Of a DNA stretch of 64,000 nucleotides, positions 21,589-30,545 are shown one piece after another. The DNA is taken from NCBI RefSeq assembly GCF_003177035.1, contig NZ_CP029488.1, positions 2,604,001-2,668,000 on the forward strand, in the 5' to 3' direction. Position 1 is the first letter of the stretch, and the number at the start of each line of letters is the position of its first letter. The stretch is from Salinisphaera sp. LB1 (GTDB lineage: Bacteria > Pseudomonadota > Gammaproteobacteria > Nevskiales > Salinisphaeraceae). A model generated the notes under the pieces. It searched no databases and had not been told where the DNA came from. It was given only the letters and a program-made list of their open reading frames with translations. Made by a program: the position numbers and the translations under genes.

Positions 21589-21666
<78 letters not shown>

Positions 21667-21681
21667 TTTAGTATTAGAAAC

Positions 21682-21726
21682 AGCCGTTTAGCAAATTCTA
21701 CGGAAAATGCTAAGCGGCTTTTCTTT
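21682..21726 (+). terminator. Rho-independent terminator after tRNA-Lys
   Basis: Stem AGCCGTTTAGCA/TGCTAAGCGGCT (one G-T pair) with a 14-base loop, followed by TTTTCTTTT. It lies inside the element and replaces the tRNA operon's own terminator, now found beyond attR. Confidence 0.85.
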
Positions 21727-22425
21727 TGCGCGTTCTACGCGGGTGCTACGTTTGAAGCGTGTTAAACATGCGATAACGAAATGGTTCAGGCCCCATTCTT
21801 ACCTATGCCCAATCGCACGACGCGCGCGACTATCGCGCTTTCCCAAGGCGGGGGCGCCGCAGATATCGGCGCTAGCCTAAGCTACCTGGAACAATTCGAC
21901 TGCGGAAAGCTCGTGGTAGTTGATTCGGGTCTGGAGGCCTGTGCCGCTTCTACGGAGCGCGCGGGGCCTCGCTTGGCGTGTGGTACCCGAAGCTTGACTC
22001 CGAGATTCCTAGTCGGAATTGTCCGCGTGCGCACAACGCGTTTTAATTCTAGGCGGTGTGCCGTGCGAAGCCTCGCTTATCTTTCTCAAGCGCATCGAAG
22101 GTAACGGTAATAAAGGCGCGAATGGCTGTGGGCAAATGCTCCGCGCCTCAAAATCTCTCGAAACTTCTCCCCTATTGGTTCGTGATTCAAATCCATCACG
22201 GCCCCGCCAAGGCGCTCTTACATTAGCGGATTTAAAGCCCAACAGCCGGAAGCTATTGCTGTGTTGCCGTGCGTAAGGACGCGCTCAGGAGTGGTAACGC
22301 GAAGCCCTCTTCTTACCCTATGACTTAGGACGGGCTCGGCCCCGATTCTGATGTGCGCTACGTGCAGCAGGAGAAGACGGTATCAGTTATGGTCGGTACT
22401 CGAGGAGCAATGACCGGGTCTACCT
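21727..22425. other. Gene-poor left end of the element
   Basis: About 700 bases lie between the terminator and hamA. One open frame of 107 codons (21781-22104) lacks coding character. A degenerate tRNA-Lys-end copy lies at 22174-22209. A strong GAGGAG at 22402-22407 sits two bases before an ATG opening a 16-codon frame (22410-22460) that overlaps the hamA start; hamA's own ATG has no close ribosome-binding site. Confidence 0.45.
22174..22209 (+). repeat. Degenerate internal copy of the tRNA-Lys 3' end
   Basis: ATTGGTT, then TTCAAATCCATCACGGCCCC and GCCA, follows the order of the attL core (ATTGGTT..TTCGAGTCTTACACGGCCCACCA) with scattered changes and one-base gaps. It is about 510 bases inside attL and lacks the rest of a tRNA. 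It is probably an older or foreign attachment-site copy. Confidence 0.5.
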
Positions 22426-23423
22426 ATGAGTATCGAGGGGGCGTGGCTAGCGGAGCTTGAAACATCGTTAGCCCTTAGTAGCAGGAGCGTCGATGCCTTT
22501 CATGCACGACTGACCGAGCATGCGTACGAATGGCCTTACGGTGACAGTAAGGTTAACGCACGCTTCTACTACCTAACGTTTCGAGATGGGCTGCCAACGG
22601 CTGAGGAATTTTTAATCTATATCTCTCAGCAAATTGTACAGTTTTGCATACCTTATGAAGAGCGTTGGGAAGCTCTGCAGAAAGCTTATGTTGAAGGCGA
22701 CTCAGCTTATACGACCGAGTTAACGCATAAAGCCAGAGATCTATTTGTCAAAGCGCGTAAGGAAGGAAAGAGCACAAGCGGTGAACCTGCCGAATTGATC
22801 TTATTTCTCATTTTAGAATCCGTGCTAAAAGCCCCGCAGATAGCTTGTAAGATGTATCTAAAAACATCACAGAATGTGCCAGTTCATGGCGCTGACAGTG
22901 TGCATGTTGGCTATGATTCGGAAAGCGACCAATTGCTGATGTATTGGGGAGAATCTAAGTTATATGGCGATCTTCTAGGCGGTATTCATGCTATAAGCAG
23001 TTCGATATCGGAGTTTGTGAAAAGCAACGACGGGAAAAGCGGTAAATCGCGCGATATCGAAATAATAAACGACCACTTTAGTTTGTCCGGCGACGGAAAT
23101 AGCGATCTAAAGGAAAGAGTTTTAGATTACTTCGACCCATATAGCCCAAAGAGCAACGAGCGAAGAGATGTATACGCGTGTCTCGAATGCTTCGACTTGC
23201 CGCTATACGAGCAGCTGAAAGGTCTATCGCCCGAGCAGGCAGAACATGTTTTTCAACAAGAATTTCAAAAAAAATAGAATCTGCTTGCAGTAGTTTTCGT
23301 AAACGCCTAAAAGCTAACGATATAGAGAATCTAGAGTTTCATTTTTTCCTTATTCCATTTGAGTCAGTGCAGAAATTCCGTGATCAGTTTCTTGCAGAAA
23401 TAGGTTTGCCCGCGCCATGTTGA
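22426..23423 (+). CDS. hamA: HamA, nuclease subunit of Hachiman defence, needs a -1 frameshift
   Basis: This DUF1837 (HamA) protein belongs to the Hachiman anti-phage system, in which HamA is a PD-(D/E)XK-type nuclease held by the HamB helicase. The first frame gives 283 residues and stops at 23275. The family core is clear: Gly119-Glu120 before a hydrophobic helix, KMYLKTSQNVPVHGADSVHV with Asp157, and Glu176-Ser-Lys178 (YWGESKLY). The stop follows a run of eight A's (23267-23274); a -1 shift there continues IESACSSFRKRLKANDIENL...FFLIPFESV for 49 more residues, making 332, and ends at 23423, overlapping the hamB ATG by seven bases. The extension looks like the true family C-terminus. Either frameshifting/slippage occurs or the gene is damaged by one lost A. 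Confidence 0.82.
23267..23277 (+). promoter_or_regulatory. A8 slippery site followed by a stop codon in hamA
   Basis: CAA AAA AAA TAG in the first frame: eight A's directly before the stop. Backward slippage by one base gives CAA AAA AAA ATA GAA and the long frame. A-runs of this length support -1 ribosomal shifts and RNA-polymerase slippage in bacteria; I did not find a clear stimulating hairpin within 20 bases downstream. Confidence 0.55.
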
Positions 23424-25984
23424 ACGAGCTTGCAACTCGTATTTGGGCCCATGAGTCATTCCATCGCGATTACACGGCTGCGATTTCGCAAGGAATCGTA
23501 AGTTCGCAGCCGCTTTCCCTGACTACAGACGTCAGTTCATTAAGTGAAACAGTGATCGCAAACTTATTACAAGCTGCGGCCGTTTTTGCCAAGTCGACTT
23601 CGATGGAACACCGTGAGGCTGCCTATCGTATTGCTACTAGCCTTTTATGGTCGAATAGTGAGGAGTTCGATCGTATCGGTGATATTAGTACCATCATTTT
23701 GGGTCGGCTCGGAAATTTTGCGGTGCTGCAAACACTATTAAAAGATGTTGGCGACAAAGCGCTAGCTAGAATTCCGTCGTCGCTTTGGTATGAGATCCAG
23801 GCGCATCAAGGTAGAAATACAGTCCAAATAGCCGGACGGAGTGCTGTTGCTCTGACAGGCTTTCAGCGAGATATATGGGAAGCGTTAAAAGACAATGACG
23901 CTGTTTGTATAAGTGGCCCTACGTCTTCCGGAAAGTCGTTCGTTGTACAAGGCTATTTATTGGCACGATCGGAAAATGCAAGGGGGTTCACTGCGGTCTA
24001 TTTAGTGCCGAGTAGAGCTTTAATCTCTCAAGTTTCAAGCGATCTGAGAGCGCTTAGTAGAAAACTAGAGATAGCCGATCTAGATATCTACACGATCTCT
24101 GAGCCTAATCTAGATACCTCTAAATCCTGTATCTATGTTTTAACTCAAGAAAGGCTACAGCTGCTTCGAGCGAATTACCCGCGCGAGGTGGAGCCGGATG
24201 TCGTCATTGTGGACGAGGCGCACAGTCTTGCCGAAGGTGATCGAGGAACGCTCTTAGAGTCCGTGCTACAGGATTTGGCGGCAACCAGTAACGGCGACTC
24301 GAAGCCGCAGTTCATCTTCGGGGCGCCGTTGACCAAAAACCTTGAGATTTATGGAAATCTCCTTGGTATCGATTCAATAAAAAATATACAGACGATCGAA
24401 TCCCCTGTTGCTCAAAACCTGCTGTTGGTAGAGGGTGAGGAATCCGCCGTCAAAGTCGACCTTTGGGTCGATGGCCGAAGACTCTCAATAGATCGAGTTG
24501 AATCAGATATTTCGAACTTTAGCGAAAACGAGAAGCTCGCGTGGGCTAGTAGTCAATTTGGTGACGGTCAACAATCGTTAATCTACGCGGGTGGTCAGGC
24601 GAAAGCAGAAAAAATTGCAAAAAAAATAAAAGAAAAAATTCGCGGCGCGAACACAGCTACTATTGACGAATTAGATGAGTTGAGCAGCTTAGTTCGTAAT
24701 TATATTCATCCGAGATACTCCATCGTGGATTGTCTGCCTTACGGTGTGGCGTATCATTATGGACGTATGCCAGCGGTCCTTCGCCGCAATGTGGAGCGGC
24801 TATTTAAAGAAGGCCATATACGCTATTTAGTTTGTACTAGCACGCTATTGCAAGGCGTGAATCTTCCTGCGCGCAATATTTTCATGATCAATCCAACTAA
24901 AGGTCGGGATTATAAAACTCATGAAAATATCCCACTTAGTAATCACGACTTTTGGAACCTGGTTGGGCGAGCTGGGCGGCTGGGTAAGGAGTTCGAAGGT
25001 AATGTCTATCTAATAGATTACGGCTCTTGGCGCGAGAAGGCGCTTGAAGGTGATAGAGAGGCTGCTTTAATTCCAGCGATGCAACAGAGCCTTTCGAATT
25101 CGCATGCAGAGATTGCGGAGTTTATTGAAAATCGCAGCTTATCGGAGGGGCCAGCGCAGGAGGTAGAGGTAACAGCTGCCAAACTGTTCAACGATTATCG
25201 TCAAGGGCGACTCGAGAGAACATTTGAGCTTTACGGCGATGATTTGACCTCAAGCGACAAGGAGCGTTTGTCTGTAGGCTTAAGGCAACTAGATAAGCTG
25301 GTAACGCTTCCTCTAGAAATTACCGGTAGGCATTCGAGCATTTCGGCACTCCGGCAACAGCGGATGTATGATTATATAGTGCGCCGAGCGGACCGTGTAG
25401 GTTTGGATCAGCTCGTTCCCCCACATCCACATTCTAGTAACGCTTATAATTCGTGTCTAAGACTTATTAAACGCTTTAATAATTATTTCGAAGGTCTGCC
25501 TAAAGCAGATAGGTCGCATACCTTTTTTGCGACGCTGGCACTTAAGTGGATGCGAGGAGAAAGCCTTCGACGGATTCTCGATGAAGCCATTAGACGGGCT
25601 CCGGAGCGTAATCCTGACACTGTGATCAGAGAGTCGCTTACTCAGATTGAAAATCGACTGCGCTTTCGCTTCGTAAAGTATGTCAATTGTTACGCCGATC
25701 TCATACGATTCTATCTTTCAGAACGAAATCGGGGCGCCGAAGCAGAAAGAATTCCGCCATTTGGGCTTTTTTTGGAGCTCGGTGCAAGTAATAAAACGAT
25801 GATAAACATGATTTCACTAGGTCTGACACGCACGGCTGCGAAAGTAGTATCGGACGAAATAAATGATTCTAGATTAGAAAGGGGGGAGTGCGTCGCGGCT
25901 CTAGGGCGATTCCTTGCAGAAAATGGGTCAGTTCCGTCGTTAATACGGTATGAGATCGAAGAGGTCATTCGTGGAACGCGATAA
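23417..25984 (+). CDS. hamB: HamB, helicase subunit of Hachiman defence
   Basis: This superfamily 2 DNA helicase has 855 residues and a start overlapping the frameshifted end of hamA. Residues 1-140 are a family-specific N-terminal domain. Walker A is GPTSSGKS (167-174) and the DEAH box is at 266-269 (VVIVDEAHSL). The second helicase domain shows YHYGRMP, CTSTLLQGVNLPARN and the arginine-finger motif LVGRAGRLGKEF, as in Ski2-like enzymes. The C-terminal 300 residues are helical and specific to HamB. Family knowledge: HamB loads on DNA ends or damaged DNA and releases HamA, which then destroys DNA. Codons ending in A or T are frequent (AAA, TTA, GAT), unlike the GC-rich neighbours, which indicates acquisition by transfer. 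Confidence 0.9.
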   Translation: MLNELATRIWAHESFHRDYTAAISQGIVSSQPLSLTTDVSSLSETVIANLLQAAAVFAKSTSMEHREAAYRIATSLLWSNSEEFDRIGDISTIILGRLGNFAVLQTLLKDVGDKALARIPSSLWYEIQAHQGRNTVQIAGRSAVALTGFQRDIWEALKDNDAVCISGPTSSGKSFVVQGYLLARSENARGFTAVYLVPSRALISQVSSDLRALSRKLEIADLDIYTISEPNLDTSKSCIYVLTQERLQLLRANYPREVEPDVVIVDEAHSLAEGDRGTLLESVLQDLAATSNGDSKPQFIFGAPLTKNLEIYGNLLGIDSIKNIQTIESPVAQNLLLVEGEESAVKVDLWVDGRRLSIDRVESDISNFSENEKLAWASSQFGDGQQSLIYAGGQAKAEKIAKKIKEKIRGANTATIDELDELSSLVRNYIHPRYSIVDCLPYGVAYHYGRMPAVLRRNVERLFKEGHIRYLVCTSTLLQGVNLPARNIFMINPTKGRDYKTHENIPLSNHDFWNLVGRAGRLGKEFEGNVYLIDYGSWREKALEGDREAALIPAMQQSLSNSHAEIAEFIENRSLSEGPAQEVEVTAAKLFNDYRQGRLERTFELYGDDLTSSDKERLSVGLRQLDKLVTLPLEITGRHSSISALRQQRMYDYIVRRADRVGLDQLVPPHPHSSNAYNSCLRLIKRFNNYFEGLPKADRSHTFFATLALKWMRGESLRRILDEAIRRAPERNPDTVIRESLTQIENRLRFRFVKYVNCYADLIRFYLSERNRGAEAERIPPFGLFLELGASNKTMINMISLGLTRTAAKVVSDEINDSRLERGECVAALGRFLAENGSVPSLIRYEIEEVIRGTR

Positions 25985-26006
25985 CTACAGCGCTCGTTGC
26001 GTACAG

Positions 26007-27749
26007 TTATTTCCACGAGTCCAAGTGCTCACGGCTTCGCCGTTGCGCTAACGCCGCGCGCTGGAATTCGTTAAGGAAATCGCGTTTGAGATTTCCCGTT
26101 ACGGGTTCGGCCCGGATTCCGGTAGCTCCGCTTCCCGTTACGTTACGCCCGAACTGCTCGGCGTTGTCCCCGTTACGACTCTCGCCGCTTGGTTGGTATT
26201 CGATTATCCAGCGGACCGGGCGCGTCGTATACGTAACGCCGAAGGCGTCGAGGTAGGCCCGCTGTTTGGTTTCGCCATAACGGCCGCATTCGGTATCGGC
26301 TGCGTAACGAACATGGGCGGGTCGCGCGCTGGCCTTAACGGCTGCGCCGCCCATGAGTTCCATGTAACGAGCGTAGTCGCCCTCATCGGCGGCTTTGCGC
26401 AGCGCTTCGGCCTTTGGGTTGCCTTCAATCTCGTTACGTATACGGCGCAGTTCGCGCCACGGCCCGATAGCGGGCGTGCCCATAAACTGAAACTGTCGAA
26501 TACCCCATTGCGACGCCCAAGCCCGGACGCGCTGGGCCGCGTCCTTCGGATCGGTTTCTAAGCCCACTTGTTGCCCGTCTGAATCGAGCGTCGCCGCGTA
26601 ATCGAGCCCGTGCCCGTCCATGCCTTTCGAGATGTATTTTGCGATATAGCCGGTTGCCGAGCCGCGCTGGGGGTCAATCGCTTGAATATCGCAGGCGCGC
26701 TCTTGCCGCGCTCGGTCCGTGGACCCGGCGACGAAGTAGACGGTGAGCATGCGCCGTAACAAGTCGGCTTGCGCCGGATCGACGAAAAGCAGGACGTGCC
26801 AGTGGGGTGTCCCGTCGTGGTGGGGTTCGGCGACCCGTAGGCCATACGCGTTAATCGATGCTCGCTTGAGCTTCGCGCGAAACTTCTTCCACTGCGCCAT
26901 CAACCATTCCTGACCTTCGCGGGGTGTGACGTGCTGACCATCGCCGGGTTCGAGCGATTTGGAATGGACGGCGTGCAACTCGGGCGGGGTGGTGATCGAT
27001 GCGAATAGCGCGACATCGCCTCGGGCCTCTGCGTAGCGCTCGATCCCATTGATACGCCCCATCATCTCGTTGCGGCGAATGCTGGGATTGCTCAGGCCTT
27101 TGTCGGCGATCTCAGCAAGGCTGAATTCCTCGCCGGTTTCGCAGACCGCCATCGTGTCATTCAGAGCGCGGGCGTTGCTTTCTTGGCGGCCGATATAACG
27201 CTGGAAGCCGTATTCGCTGATATACAGGCCGGCGCGTTTATGAACGAGCCCAAATGAGCGCGCTTGCTGCTCGTGTTTGCGGCCGTGAATCTTGTGCAAC
27301 TGATTACGCCACCAGCCCTCATCGCGCATGCGCTCGATACAGCCGAACAGGGTGCGATTACGGTTCGGCGTGGGCGGAACCAGACCGAAACGCGAGACCA
27401 CGCCGTGACCGGCGGCGTAGGTTGCCATTTCATCACCGTTGACGCGGCGCATGCTCTGCTCGCACTCGTGGCTACGGCGCTTTGCGAAGGCTCGAATATC
27501 GTCGCCGGTCGCACTCGGCGGCAGAAGCCCTTGTGACGCTTCGACGAATTCCCGCAACTGGATGTTGGCGGGCCGCATCGGGTTCGGCCGGCCTTGGTCA
27601 CGTTCTGCGTGATAGGTGCGCCGATGCTGTTCGGCCAGTGCGTTCGCGACCGGAACGGGTTGGGAGTCTAGTTGTTTCCGTAACCAAATCCGCCCGTCGG
27701 CCGGGATTTCCCGCGCTGACAACCCGCTAACGTATTCGATGACGCTCAT
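26007..27749 (-). CDS. Phage GPA-type HUH replication endonuclease
   Basis: This rolling-circle replication initiator related to P2 gene A protein has 580 residues (P2 A has about 760). The metal-binding HUH motif is His316-Trp-His318 (GTPHWHVLLF), preceded by a conserved YGLRVAEPHHDG. The two active tyrosines are Tyr368 and Tyr372 (GYIAKYISK). The end is rich in charged residues. It should nick the element's own origin and let it replicate after excision. The start overlaps the stop of the next upstream gene by four bases (ATGA), so it sits at the end of a small operon. It is convergent with hamB, with only 22 bases between stops. Confidence 0.87.
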   Translation of the reverse strand: MSVIEYVSGLSAREIPADGRIWLRKQLDSQPVPVANALAEQHRRTYHAERDQGRPNPMRPANIQLREFVEASQGLLPPSATGDDIRAFAKRRSHECEQSMRRVNGDEMATYAAGHGVVSRFGLVPPTPNRNRTLFGCIERMRDEGWWRNQLHKIHGRKHEQQARSFGLVHKRAGLYISEYGFQRYIGRQESNARALNDTMAVCETGEEFSLAEIADKGLSNPSIRRNEMMGRINGIERYAEARGDVALFASITTPPELHAVHSKSLEPGDGQHVTPREGQEWLMAQWKKFRAKLKRASINAYGLRVAEPHHDGTPHWHVLLFVDPAQADLLRRMLTVYFVAGSTDRARQERACDIQAIDPQRGSATGYIAKYISKGMDGHGLDYAATLDSDGQQVGLETDPKDAAQRVRAWASQWGIRQFQFMGTPAIGPWRELRRIRNEIEGNPKAEALRKAADEGDYARYMELMGGAAVKASARPAHVRYAADTECGRYGETKQRAYLDAFGVTYTTRPVRWIIEYQPSGESRNGDNAEQFGRNVTGSGATGIRAEPVTGNLKRDFLNEFQRAALAQRRSREHLDSWK

Positions 27750-28027
27750 GGCTTCGTGTCCGTTTTGGTACGGGCAGCGTCGAACGCGCGCCGTGCCTCG
27801 TAGCAGGCCTTGAGATCGCGGGCCAGCTGTTCGACTGCTTCGAATGACAGATAGACGGCCGACGCGTGTTGGCCGGTCGCATCCGCCAGCGTCAATCGAA
27901 CCGGGTGGCTGGTCGTGTTCCAGGCTTCCGTCTTGACGCTGGCGTTATGCCGGTCGAACACGCCACCCGAGGCGAGCAGTTCGGGCTGGATTGGATCGGC
28001 GGCTTGTTCGCCTGCTGGACGACTCAT
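27746..28027 (-). CDS. Hypothetical protein of the element
   Basis: The protein has 93 residues, translationally coupled to both neighbours by four-base overlaps (with the HTH gene upstream and the replication gene downstream). It contains VRLTLADATGQHASAVYLSFEAVEQLARDLKACYEARR, a short beta-alpha arrangement. I do not recognise it. Its fixed place before the replication gene suggests a role in replication or copy control (inference). Confidence 0.6.
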   Translation of the reverse strand: MSRPAGEQAADPIQPELLASGGVFDRHNASVKTEAWNTTSHPVRLTLADATGQHASAVYLSFEAVEQLARDLKACYEARRAFDAARTKTDTKP

Positions 28028-28224
28028 GCCGACACCTGGTGCATGCTGTCGTCGATGAACTTCGCGACATCCGCAGCGCGGTAACGCACCCAGCGGCCGC
28101 GTTTGACGTAGGGCAGGGGATAACGCTTTTCACAGCGCCAGACCGCGAGCGTGTGAGCGGTTACGCCGAGTAATTCGGCGGCTTGCTCCGACGTGAGTAG
28201 GGCGGGGACTTCGTATTTATTCAT
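28024..28224 (-). CDS. AlpA/excisionase-like helix-turn-helix protein
   Basis: The protein has 66 residues from ATG 28224 (MNKYEVPALLTSEQAAELL); a GTG at 28257 would add 11. It is a MerR-like winged HTH (SEQAAELLGVTAHTLAVWRCEKRYPLPYVKRGRWVRYRAADVAKFID) found in excisionases and AlpA regulators of P4-like elements. It probably controls excision and the downstream replication genes. The stop overlaps the next gene by four bases. The 108 bases upstream (28225-28332) probably hold the promoter. Confidence 0.8.
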   Translation of the reverse strand: MNKYEVPALLTSEQAAELLGVTAHTLAVWRCEKRYPLPYVKRGRWVRYRAADVAKFIDDSMHQVSA

Positions 28225-28332
28225 CGTGGTGAGGTTGGGCTGTTGAACCTTCACCACTAAGGCTAGATGCGCGCCGTCGTCCGGAGACGCGTGTATTTTT
28301 AATCCCCTATGCGACTAAATTACTCGCCTACC

Positions 28333-29028
28333 CTAGACTCGCAGTCGGTCGCGCAGTGCTCTCGCGATCGCATCGGCTTGCAGCGGCGCGGCATCGCCGG
28401 GCCGATAATTCGGTGCCCACTCCTCGGGATGGGATGCCAGATGTCTGGAGAGCGTGGATATCTTCGCTGAGCCGTCCGGGTGGGCGAAGGTTCGAGGCTT
28501 TTGGCGCACCAGCCTTTGCGCGGCATCCGCAGCGGCTCGCCGCTTTTGTTCATTGCGCACTTGATTGCCATGCGGCGCTTCGGGTTCGCCGGGCTCGGCA
28601 TCGAAAGCGGCTTTCAAGTCTTGTGGAATCGCGAGTTCCTTGTTTTCCGCAACCACGACCGCCTGTCTAGCATCAACGCGCGTTTTTGCCTTGCGGAAGC
28701 GCGGTTGCTGTCCAACCGGCTGAAGCGAGACTCCAAGGCAGCTTTCGAGCAATCGCCGCATCCGCAGAAGTTCGGCATTGAGTGTTTCTTGCCCCTGTCG
28801 ATACATCCCGCGTCGCGGGTCACAGGCGCAGAGCAGTAGTGCGCATTCTTCGATCGTCCATGTGTCGCGAAGCGCATATTCGAGGCAGATTGCGCTGAAG
28901 CGCGGCGGGTATGCTTTGTTTTGTGGCGCCGCGGCTTCCTCGCGCGCCGCTTGCTGAAATCTCGCCGCTGCCTGTTCCGCCATGACTTGTGCGGGGTCTT
29001 TGTTGTCGGGGTCGCTAGTGCTGCCCAT
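28333..29028 (-). CDS. Hypothetical protein of the element
   Basis: The protein has 231 residues; its ATG directly follows the integrase stop (TAA-ATG). A hydrophobic, Cys-containing middle part (CLEYALRDTWTIEECALLLCACDP) is flanked by charged, Ala- and Gln-rich regions. It has no recognised domain. It is probably co-transcribed with the integrase. Confidence 0.6.
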   Translation of the reverse strand: MGSTSDPDNKDPAQVMAEQAAARFQQAAREEAAAPQNKAYPPRFSAICLEYALRDTWTIEECALLLCACDPRRGMYRQGQETLNAELLRMRRLLESCLGVSLQPVGQQPRFRKAKTRVDARQAVVVAENKELAIPQDLKAAFDAEPGEPEAPHGNQVRNEQKRRAAADAAQRLVRQKPRTFAHPDGSAKISTLSRHLASHPEEWAPNYRPGDAAPLQADAIARALRDRLRV

Positions 29029-30312
29029 TTAAGCGTCTGCCGTTGATGATTGGTCGTTATCGGTAATGGATGCTGAGCGTCTGATACGGCCGGTGCTGAG
29101 CATGAAGTCTGTGATTTTCTGCATTGGGTCGCGCAGCCGCTCGATCTCGATCGAGACGTAATCGCGCGTGATCGGGTGGCCGCCAATCTCGTGATTCACT
29201 AAGGCGCTGAGTGCATAGGTTGGCACGCCGAGCCGCTCCGCCGTGGTCACGAACGTTCGGCGAAGGTCATGTATACGAAAGGTCACCCCGGATTCCTTGA
29301 CGATCCGTTGCTGCTGATAGCGGGGTTCGGTGAAATGGCCCGCGCGACCGCTGCCGGGGAAGACAAAGGGCGTACCTGCCAATGCCGCGTCTGTTTCGTG
29401 CGCCTTTCGCCGGGCTTCAAGCAGATCGATCAGGTAGTCCGATAACGGGAGCGTGTGATCCTTGTGATTCTTCGTATCGAGGGCGGTCAGCGTGCGCTCG
29501 TGGAAATTGACGCAATCCCAGCGCAGCGACAAACCTTCGGTGCGCCGCAGCCCGGTCAAGATCAAGAGCGCGAAGTAATCGCCGGCCGTCTGCGACGCCG
29601 TGCCCCAAGGCTCGGCGCGCAGCGTGTTCACCGCGTTGAACCATGCCGGCAAATCGTGCGCCTTGATATAAGTCTTGCGCGGCGCCGGCTTGCGCCATGC
29701 CCGCACCTTCGACAGTCGCTTGGCGGGATTGACGGGCAGGGTTGAATTGCCGTCGTCGTCTTCGAACAAGCCTTCGGCGAAGTTCCACAGTGCGCGCAGT
29801 GTGCGCATTACTTGGTCGGCGTACGGGTTGCCAGAGTCGGCGGCGAGTTTGGCGTGTCGATCGACCGCCATGCGGCCGTTGATCTCGACCAGCGGCTTTT
29901 TCGTCCAGTCCTTCAAGCCGACTTCGATATTCTGGCGATAGCCCTTAACCGTGGTGGCTTTCAGGTTGTGACGCTCGATATAGAGTTCGAGCGCATCGCC
30001 GAGGGTGAAGCGCTGAGAATCGGCTTTCTGCTTCTCCGCGTGCGGGTCCACGCCTTCGGCGATCTGTGCCGAGACGATCGCGGCTTTTTTCTTCGCCATA
30101 GCGGGCGGCATATCCGGATAGCGACCGAGTGTCAGCCGTCGGCCGCCGCGCCCCTTGATGCGCTTTTGCATCTGCCAGCTTTTCGAGCCCTTGTCTGTGA
30201 CGACCAGACGCAGGCCCGGTACAGTCCGGTCGGCGTAGCTTGCGCGCTTGCCGGGTGGCGCGTCGGGAAGGGCGTCGATCGTGCGTTTCGTGAAGCTGAT
30301 TTGTTCGGTCAT
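29029..30312 (-). CDS. int: Tyrosine recombinase integrase (P4-like)
   Basis: The protein has 427 residues. The N-terminal DUF4102-type arm-binding domain (FTKRTIDALPDAPPGK...YADRTVPGLRL) and SAM-like core-binding domain (105-200) precede the catalytic domain. Catalytic residues: Arg256 (TGLRRTEG), His348 and Arg351 (IHDLRRTF), His374 and Tyr385 (TRDYVSIEIERLRDPMQ). It lies next to attR and reads away from it, the usual layout for elements inserted in tRNA genes. It catalyses insertion and excision at the 46-bp tRNA-Lys core. Confidence 0.93.
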   Translation of the reverse strand: MTEQISFTKRTIDALPDAPPGKRASYADRTVPGLRLVVTDKGSKSWQMQKRIKGRGGRRLTLGRYPDMPPAMAKKKAAIVSAQIAEGVDPHAEKQKADSQRFTLGDALELYIERHNLKATTVKGYRQNIEVGLKDWTKKPLVEINGRMAVDRHAKLAADSGNPYADQVMRTLRALWNFAEGLFEDDDGNSTLPVNPAKRLSKVRAWRKPAPRKTYIKAHDLPAWFNAVNTLRAEPWGTASQTAGDYFALLILTGLRRTEGLSLRWDCVNFHERTLTALDTKNHKDHTLPLSDYLIDLLEARRKAHETDAALAGTPFVFPGSGRAGHFTEPRYQQQRIVKESGVTFRIHDLRRTFVTTAERLGVPTYALSALVNHEIGGHPITRDYVSIEIERLRDPMQKITDFMLSTGRIRRSASITDNDQSSTADA

Positions 30313-30499
30313 TGGGGCCTCGCTTGGGAACCAATGCCGCGCATCAATCGATAGTCAATTGGTTAGCCGGTGCTACGATGCGCGTGCATTTTGCGGCATT
30401 GAGCGTAGCACGCGTGAACTACGAACAACCAACAAGTCGTTGATGTATATAGCTTAGTGAAGTTTCGTGAATCAATTGGTATGGACGGTGTGGTTGTCC

Positions 30500-30545
30500 C
30501 TTAATCAATTGGTTGTAAGTTCGAGTCTTACACGGCCCACCAATT
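30500..30545 (+). repeat. attR: 46-bp direct repeat of the tRNA-Lys 3' end
   Basis: Identical to 21621-21666. One base outside the match (C instead of T at 30499) marks the left limit. It lies 188 bases from the integrase start. Confidence 0.92.

What the first reader, a model, noticed from the sequence alone, without database searches (positions are those of the whole stretch)
23267..23423. hamA is split by an A8 run: programmed -1 frameshift, slippage, or recent decay
The first frame ends right after eight A's. The -1 frame continues for 49 codons with family-like sequence (FRKRLKANDIENL, FFLIPFESV), and its stop overlaps the hamB ATG by seven bases, as expected for a coupled full-length gene. 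A nuclease under slippage control would be produced in a long and a short form in a fixed ratio, a possible way to limit toxicity.
Basis: partly seen in the sequence, partly recalled or inferred. Interest (0 to 1): 0.85.

Follow-up and report, generated by a model that had tools for sequence, protein, structure and literature searches.

The report
Defence nuclease gene split at A8
A bacterial anti-phage nuclease gene is out of frame at a run of eight A's near its end, most likely through an ordinary small deletion or a sequencing slip rather than a designed control switch, although a little full-length protein could still be made by slippage.

Summary
hamA (22426-23277, 283 codons) stops right after an A8 run (23267-23274). 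The -1 frame carries the missing HamA C-terminus (49 codons), whose stop overlaps the hamB start by 7 bases. It is one Hachiman hamA gene with one frame break: the tail alone matches the ends of PADLOC HamA models (best 8e-10). In 85 of 94 loci with a hit the tail lies in the same frame as the rest, and no intact homologue examined ends at residue 283. In a confident homologue model the lost part is half a helix, a strand and the last helix, so the 283-residue form is probably non-functional.

Programmed frameshifting is not supported: no homologue has more than six A's at the joint (0 of 85), no downstream structure or Shine-Dalgarno-like stimulator was found, and a run of eight or more is expected from codon usage in about 22% of draws. 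Best reading: a recent slippage indel; close rival, a sequencing or assembly error, not separable without reads. Leaky bypass at A8 is plausible from published work, so the gene may be turned down rather than dead. hamAB is cargo of an 8.9-kb integrated element.

The parts
22426..23277 (+). hamA, zero frame: 283 codons, then TAG; holds the invariant D157, E176, K178
   Evidence: Pfam HamA 3e-43, PADLOC HamA 3e-65, invariant columns
23267..23274 (+). A8 run where the frame changes
   Evidence: sequence
23274..23423 (+). missing HamA C-terminus in the -1 frame, 49 codons and TGA
   Evidence: PADLOC HamA model ends, 8e-10; profile match 267-324, 6e-13; conserved F308, P311, R319
23417..25984 (+). 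hamB, DEAD-box helicase, 855 aa, one open frame
   Evidence: PADLOC HamB 8e-237 over 2-849
21614..21666 (+). left direct repeat of the element, in the 3' part of tRNA-Lys(CTT) 21589-21663
30493..30545 (+). right direct repeat of the element (96% identical over 53 nt)
26007..27749 (-). Phage_GPA replication initiator of the element
   Evidence: Pfam 1.5e-68, phrog_91
28024..28257 (-). HTH_17 regulator, excisionase-like
29029..30312 (-). tyrosine integrase of the element

Best explanation
hamA is a single Hachiman nuclease gene whose frame was broken recently by a slippage indel in an A-run; it is not a programmed frameshift. Zero-frame translation gives a 283-residue HamA that keeps the catalytic D-ExK residues but lacks half a helix, a strand and the last helix of the fold, so it is probably unstable. 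Translation also ends 139 bases before the hamB start, which probably lowers HamB too, because hamB usually starts where hamA ends. As the break sits in A8, RNA polymerase or ribosome slippage should still give a small share of full-length HamA, and replication slippage could switch the gene back. Shown: one gene, one break, open hamB, tail conserved in the family. Inferred: that the break is in the organism and not in the assembly, loss of function, leaky bypass, lower hamB translation.
For: The tail is the HamA end. 85 of 94 loci with a hit, and L036, have it in frame; eight of eight other hit genomes in a phylum sample of 398 have one continuous match. Six of 93 other loci carry otherwise broken hamA genes, so loss is not rare. 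hamB is open over 855 codons and the only break seen in the operon is this one. Runs of eight or more A are expected here in about 22% of draws. The sampled assembly shows no general homopolymer trouble: 43 runs of six or seven lie inside genes open on both sides. Published: 8A indels are frequent and partly bypassed in E. coli (PMC3812077, passages). GeneTack's authors see frameshifts near a 3' end as more likely indels (PMC3711429 section 29).
Against: A sequencing or assembly error gives the same picture; the same authors expect homology-validated singletons to be sequencing errors rather than indels (PMC3711429 section 29). No run of eight lies in a called native gene of the sample, so quality at that length is tested only by hamB's in-frame A8. 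No second inactivating change is seen, which an older dead gene would have.
Confidence: 0.47

Rival explanations
1. Sequencing or assembly error: hamA is intact in the organism and the A-run is miscounted in the record.
For: A-runs are the typical place for such errors (general knowledge). hamB is intact, the element has clean direct repeats, and the tail keeps all the family's near-invariant residues. Authors of a survey of 1106 genomes expect homology-validated singletons to be errors (PMC3711429 section 29).
Against: One contig, 99.97% complete. In 464 kb, A/T runs of 6, 7, 8, 9 number 68, 26, 9, 1, a plain decline. 43 of 136 runs of six or more lie inside genes that stay open. Four of 17 run-bearing same-strand junctions, read by eye, are pairs of different genes.
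Confidence: 0.36
2. Selected slippage: A8 makes a short and a full-length HamA in a set ratio, by RNA polymerase or ribosome slippage, to hold the nuclease low.
For: Phase A_AAA_AAA then stop; published precedent tssM1 with A11, about 20% frameshifting and both forms needed (PMC4256274, abstract and section 7). Hachiman expression is mildly toxic (PMC12278908, passages). A 101-nt stretch around the run folds at z -2.26, 5 of 200 shuffles as good, one of four stretches tried.
Against: 0 of 85 homologues have more than six A's at the joint. Downstream folds z -0.02 and 0.17; no Shine-Dalgarno-like word in the 25 nt upstream. A_AAA_AAA is much less shift-prone than A_AAA_AAG in E. coli (PMC5009743, passages). 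E. coli RNA polymerase inserted at an A7 in only 0.39% (PMC6260861, passages), and avoidance of A/T runs is evident at nine in many genomes, not eight (PMC1088944, passages). The short form lacks part of the fold.
Confidence: 0.1
3. The 283-residue HamA is itself the working protein and the tail is dispensable.
For: The catalytic residues, and the HamB-contact regions named for E. coli HamA (30-63, 102-117, 159-199; PMC12278908 section 6 part 1), would lie before the break.
Against: P311 in 85 of 85 and R319 in 84 of 85 homologues chosen for reaching the tail. The tail region is part of solved HamA folds and is matched in the chain 9wh1.
Confidence: 0.05

Closest known systems
Hachiman HamAB (E. 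coli ECOR31; PMC12278908)
   Same: Nuclease plus Ski2-like helicase operon, D-ExK residues, fold match to 8vx9 and 8vxy
   Different: hamA is out of frame here at A8; the solved HamA includes the C-terminal region
Citrobacter rodentium tssM1 transcriptional slippage (PMC4256274)
   Same: Gene interrupted after a poly-A run, with a conserved C-terminal part in another frame
   Different: A11 rather than A8; shown by experiment, seen also in Yersinia; here neither conserved nor tested
M.HaeIII indels in an 8A repeat bypassed in E. coli (PMC3812077)
   Same: One-base indel in a run of eight A's of a DNA-acting enzyme gene
   Different: Laboratory drift, methyltransferase; function after bypass was measured
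dnaX -1 frameshifting (named in PMC5009743)
   Same: A-rich slippery site giving two products
   Different: A_AAA_AAG, more shift-prone; its stimulators (recalled: upstream Shine-Dalgarno, downstream stem-loop) were not seen here
Frame-broken R-M genes of Streptococcus thermophilus (PMC11514479)
   Same: Defence genes inactivated, perhaps temporarily, by frameshifts
   Different: R-M rather than Hachiman; seen through methylomes

Membership tests
Hachiman (HamA/HamB) | HamA (DUF1837) sequence family | tested here: met
   Pfam HamA 3e-43, PADLOC HamA 3e-65; tail 8e-10
Hachiman (HamA/HamB) | hamB helicase next to hamA | tested here: met
   PADLOC HamB 8e-237
Hachiman (HamA/HamB) | D-ExK catalytic residues | tested here: met
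   D157, E176, K178 are invariant in A1
Hachiman (HamA/HamB) | complete HamA in one frame | tested here: not met
   tail in the -1 frame
Programmed -1 ribosomal frameshift | slippery heptamer in the right phase | tested here: met
   A_AAA_AAA then TAG
Programmed -1 ribosomal frameshift | stimulatory structure or Shine-Dalgarno-like element | tested here: not met
   downstream z -0.02 and 0.17; no such word in 25 nt upstream
Programmed -1 ribosomal frameshift | site conserved among homologues | tested here: not met
   0 of 85 have more than six A's at the joint; nearest about 47% identical
Transcriptional slippage gene (tssM1 type) | long A-run before an early stop, rest in another frame | tested here: inconclusive
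   A8, shorter than the A11 and 9A cases cited
Transcriptional slippage gene (tssM1 type) | heterogeneous mRNA and both proteins | not testable with these tools
   needs RNA or protein data
Phase-variable homopolymer gene | run length varies between isolates and switches the frame | not testable with these tools
   one genome per species held; none of 84 other genomes of the order has hamA
Pseudogene by recent indel | single break, rest intact, homologues intact | tested here: met
   a sequence error is not excluded

The most novel reading that the evidence does not exclude
HamA is made in two forms by slippage at A8, an abundant short form and a rare full-length nuclease, and hamB translation depends on the same slippage through the stop-start overlap, so a mobile element keeps an abortive-infection nuclease and its helicase at a low, coupled level.
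Probability: 0.08. Interest if true: 0.65.

Novelty: new member of a known kind. Interest (0 to 1): 0.25.

Why it matters
Mainly a caution: an annotation would list a complete-looking HamA of 283 aa and count the Hachiman system as active although its nuclease lacks a conserved part of its fold. If slippage does restore it, this would be a natural case of a defence nuclease held low by frame leakage, open to a simple reporter test.

Tried and rejected
Single-protein scans of the genome and viral collections found no relative; the alignment found 122 in genomes, of which the best 80 were kept, and 5 in viral contigs. Phage records: no match. Plasmids: 35 records, all under 60% identity, of which I fetched five. 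Solved structures by sequence gave AbpA-like chains, not HamAB; HamAB came up by fold. NCBIfam: no HamA model matched.

An independent tail gene was considered: starts in that frame are GTG 23178 and ATG 23187 inside hamA, then GTG 23367 and TTG 23406; the match to the HamA end makes it unneeded. The stem enclosing A8 has the wrong geometry for a downstream stimulator. The frame-switch scan of 464 kb gave 114 candidates; I looked at a few and at four of the 17 run-bearing junctions, and draw no error count from it. In one search my tail read-out is wrong for the minus-strand loci L133, L134 and L137; one search is used instead. L036 was counted as not full by a bookkeeping slip; one search shows its full tail. 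My own codon model did not call hamA or hamB as genes, being trained on the GC-rich host.

Literature: searches. Papers seen: PMC12278908 (outline, section 6 part 1 of 3, passages), PMC3711429 (abstract, sections 17 and 29), PMC4256274 (abstract, section 7), PMC6149199 (abstract only, not used), passages of PMC1088944, PMC5009743, PMC3812077, PMC6260861, PMC11514479. The search for Hachiman with frameshift listed nine papers; I looked into one, PMC11514479, whose frameshift passages concern R-M systems. I make no claim that nothing is in print. On checking, I lowered the real-indel reading to 0.47 (from 0.5) and raised error to 0.36 (from 0.33), because PMC3711429 leans to error more than I had first written.

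Full report
Check of the observation. The A8 run is at 23267-23274. Frame 0 of hamA (ATG 22426) ends at TAG 23275-23277 after 283 codons. The -1 frame from 23274 runs 49 codons to TGA 23421-23423. hamB starts at ATG 23417, a 7-base overlap.

One gene, one break. The frame-0 part matches Pfam HamA (3e-43) and PADLOC HamA (3e-65, model 15-253 of 314). The 49-residue tail alone matches ten PADLOC HamA models at E up to 1, the best at 8e-10 over model 270-312 of 314; in Pfam it stays under the cut-off (0.12 alone, 0.0017 with seven more residues). A profile of 63 homologues finds this genome twice, at model 8-304 reading through stops and at 267-324 in the other frame (6e-13). Eight other genomes of the 398 sampled from the phylum have a match; each is one continuous match that reaches model 314-325. 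Set against the Azospirillum homologue by eye, the two parts meet without a gap.

Do homologues end at residue 283? I examined 95 loci: five from the genome search (the window's own included), five of 35 plasmid records, 80 of 122 genome-collection relatives and five viral contigs. L005 gave no hit, leaving 94. In 85 (82 distinct proteins) the main ORF runs into the tail. Of the other nine, one is the window; L036 is in fact full length; L088 runs off its contig; L022 has an in-frame stop, L077 a deletion with a frame change, L010 broken hamA and hamB, L070 a fused end, L073 and L049 are truncated (these readings are mine). So no intact HamA examined ends at 283, and hamA loss is not rare (6 of 93 other loci). 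In the 85, P311 is present in 85, R319 in 84, F308 in 79, and the window's tail has all three; the 85 were chosen for reaching the tail, so these figures describe the tail when present. None has more than six A's at the joint. The nearest relatives are about 47% identical, so recent conservation of A8 cannot be tested.

What the short form lacks. A model of the Brocadia homologue L012 (44% identical to the window's frame-0 protein) has mean pLDDT 91.9. Window residue 283 falls on L012 residue 278, inside helix 264-292; beyond lie strand 299-307 and helix 310-320. The best solved matches are 8zue (Z 19.9, rmsd 3.9, 269 aligned), 8vx9 (Z 14.4, rmsd 6.2, 235) and 8vxy (Z 12.2, rmsd 6.0, 226), Hachiman entries whose aligned ranges end at model residue 323, 324 and 314; FokI and MspJI follow at Z 4.8 and 4.7, which may be only a common arrangement. 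In E. coli HamAB the named HamA contacts with HamB are 30-63, 102-117 and 159-199, and the mutated active-site pair is 138/140 (PMC12278908 section 6 part 1). Inference: the tail completes the nuclease fold rather than the HamB contact, and a 283-residue HamA is probably unstable.

Effect on hamB. hamA and hamB overlap in 53 of 77 loci where hamB was found (85 searched, 8 not found) and lie within 30 bases in 17 more; 7 have wider gaps. 35 of the 77 have a Shine-Dalgarno-like word within 16 nt of the hamB start; the window has none. Termination 139 bases upstream would therefore probably lower HamB. This is inference.

Programmed or not. For: A_AAA_AAA followed by a stop suits -1 slippage, and Citrobacter tssM1 is a published interrupted gene rescued at A11, with about 20% frameshifting and a needed ratio of forms (PMC4256274, abstract and section 7). 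Against: no conservation of the run; downstream folds at z -0.02 and 0.17; no Shine-Dalgarno-like word in the 25 nt upstream; A_AAA_AAA is much less shift-prone than A_AAA_AAG in E. coli (PMC5009743, passages); avoidance of A/T runs is evident at nine in many genomes (PMC1088944, passages). A 101-nt stretch around the run folds at z -2.26 (5 of 200 shuffles as good), one of four stretches tried, with A8 inside the enclosed loop; a 150-nt stretch gives z 1.37. The run is unremarkable: with the operon's own codon usage about 22% of draws of this peptide give at least eight A's.

Error or mutation. The genome is one 4.14-Mb contig, 99.97% complete. In 464 kb (window plus 20 stretches) A/T runs of 6, 7, 8 and 9 number 68, 26, 9 and 1, and G/C runs of 6 number 32. 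Of these 136 runs, 43 lie more than 60 bases inside called genes that stay open. Of 17 runs beside two same-strand genes, four read by eye are ordinary pairs of different genes. No run of eight lies in a called native gene, so the test is weak at that length; hamB's in-frame A8 (24619) is the one comparison inside a gene. GeneTack's authors expect homology-validated singleton frameshifts to be sequencing errors rather than indels, but cases near a 3' end to lean to indels (PMC3711429 section 29); this break is at codon 283 of about 332. I put a real indel at 0.47 and an error at 0.36.

Leaky rescue. In M.HaeIII, indel formation and bypass both rose with repeat length, and indels in the 8A repeat were highly tolerated (PMC3812077, passages). 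E. coli RNA polymerase inserted at an A7 at 0.39%, and the same paper calls its bypass ability relatively low (PMC6260861, passages). If the break is real, a low level of full-length HamA is likely. Hachiman expression is mildly toxic (PMC12278908, passages), so such a state could be tolerated or favoured; nothing here shows selection for it.

Surroundings. hamAB (47% GC against 60-62% on either side) is cargo of an element bounded by 53-nt direct repeats, the left one in tRNA-Lys(CTT), spaced 8,879 bases, with an integrase, an excisionase-like HTH, a 231-aa ORF and a Phage_GPA replication initiator. None of the 84 other genomes of the order searched has hamA, so the operon probably came with the element. 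A same-genus genome has a related integrase-GPA element (L128) and a GPA gene beside a PM2-type P2 coat protein gene (L127).

Verdict. It is ordinary in kind: a defence gene broken, or miscounted, at a homopolymer, with a plausible but untested leak.

Noticed in passing
window 21614-30545: hamAB is the low-GC cargo of an 8.9-kb integrated element at tRNA-Lys(CTT) with 53-nt direct repeats, integrase, HTH and Phage_GPA initiator.
   Followed up: partly
L128 and L127 (unnamed same-genus genome G002): L128 holds a related integrase-ORF-GPA element (GPA 60% identical) with a match to the tRNA-Lys repeat; L127 holds a GPA gene beside a PM2-type P2 coat protein and a packaging-ATPase-like gene, so the hamAB element may be related to, or a satellite of, corticovirus-like proviruses. 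The virus link is inference.
   Followed up: partly
window 25997-26049: A 53-nt stretch at the end of the GPA gene is 94% identical to L128 391-443, far above the rest (about 65%), perhaps a conserved DNA site.
   Followed up: no
window 24619-24626: hamB has its own A8 run, in frame, a second possible slippage spot; resampled codons give a run this long in 8.5% of draws.
   Followed up: partly
L010 3106-6683: An E. coli record (CP061270.1) has hamA and hamB both broken beside an integrase and genes annotated as phage polarity suppression and ogr/Delta-like, which recalls P4-type satellites.
   Followed up: no
PDB 9wh1, 8zue: The HamA profile, tail included, matches the C-terminal domain of 9wh1 (2e-15) and weakly that of 8zue (0.12), both named anti-bacteriophage protein A.
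   Followed up: no
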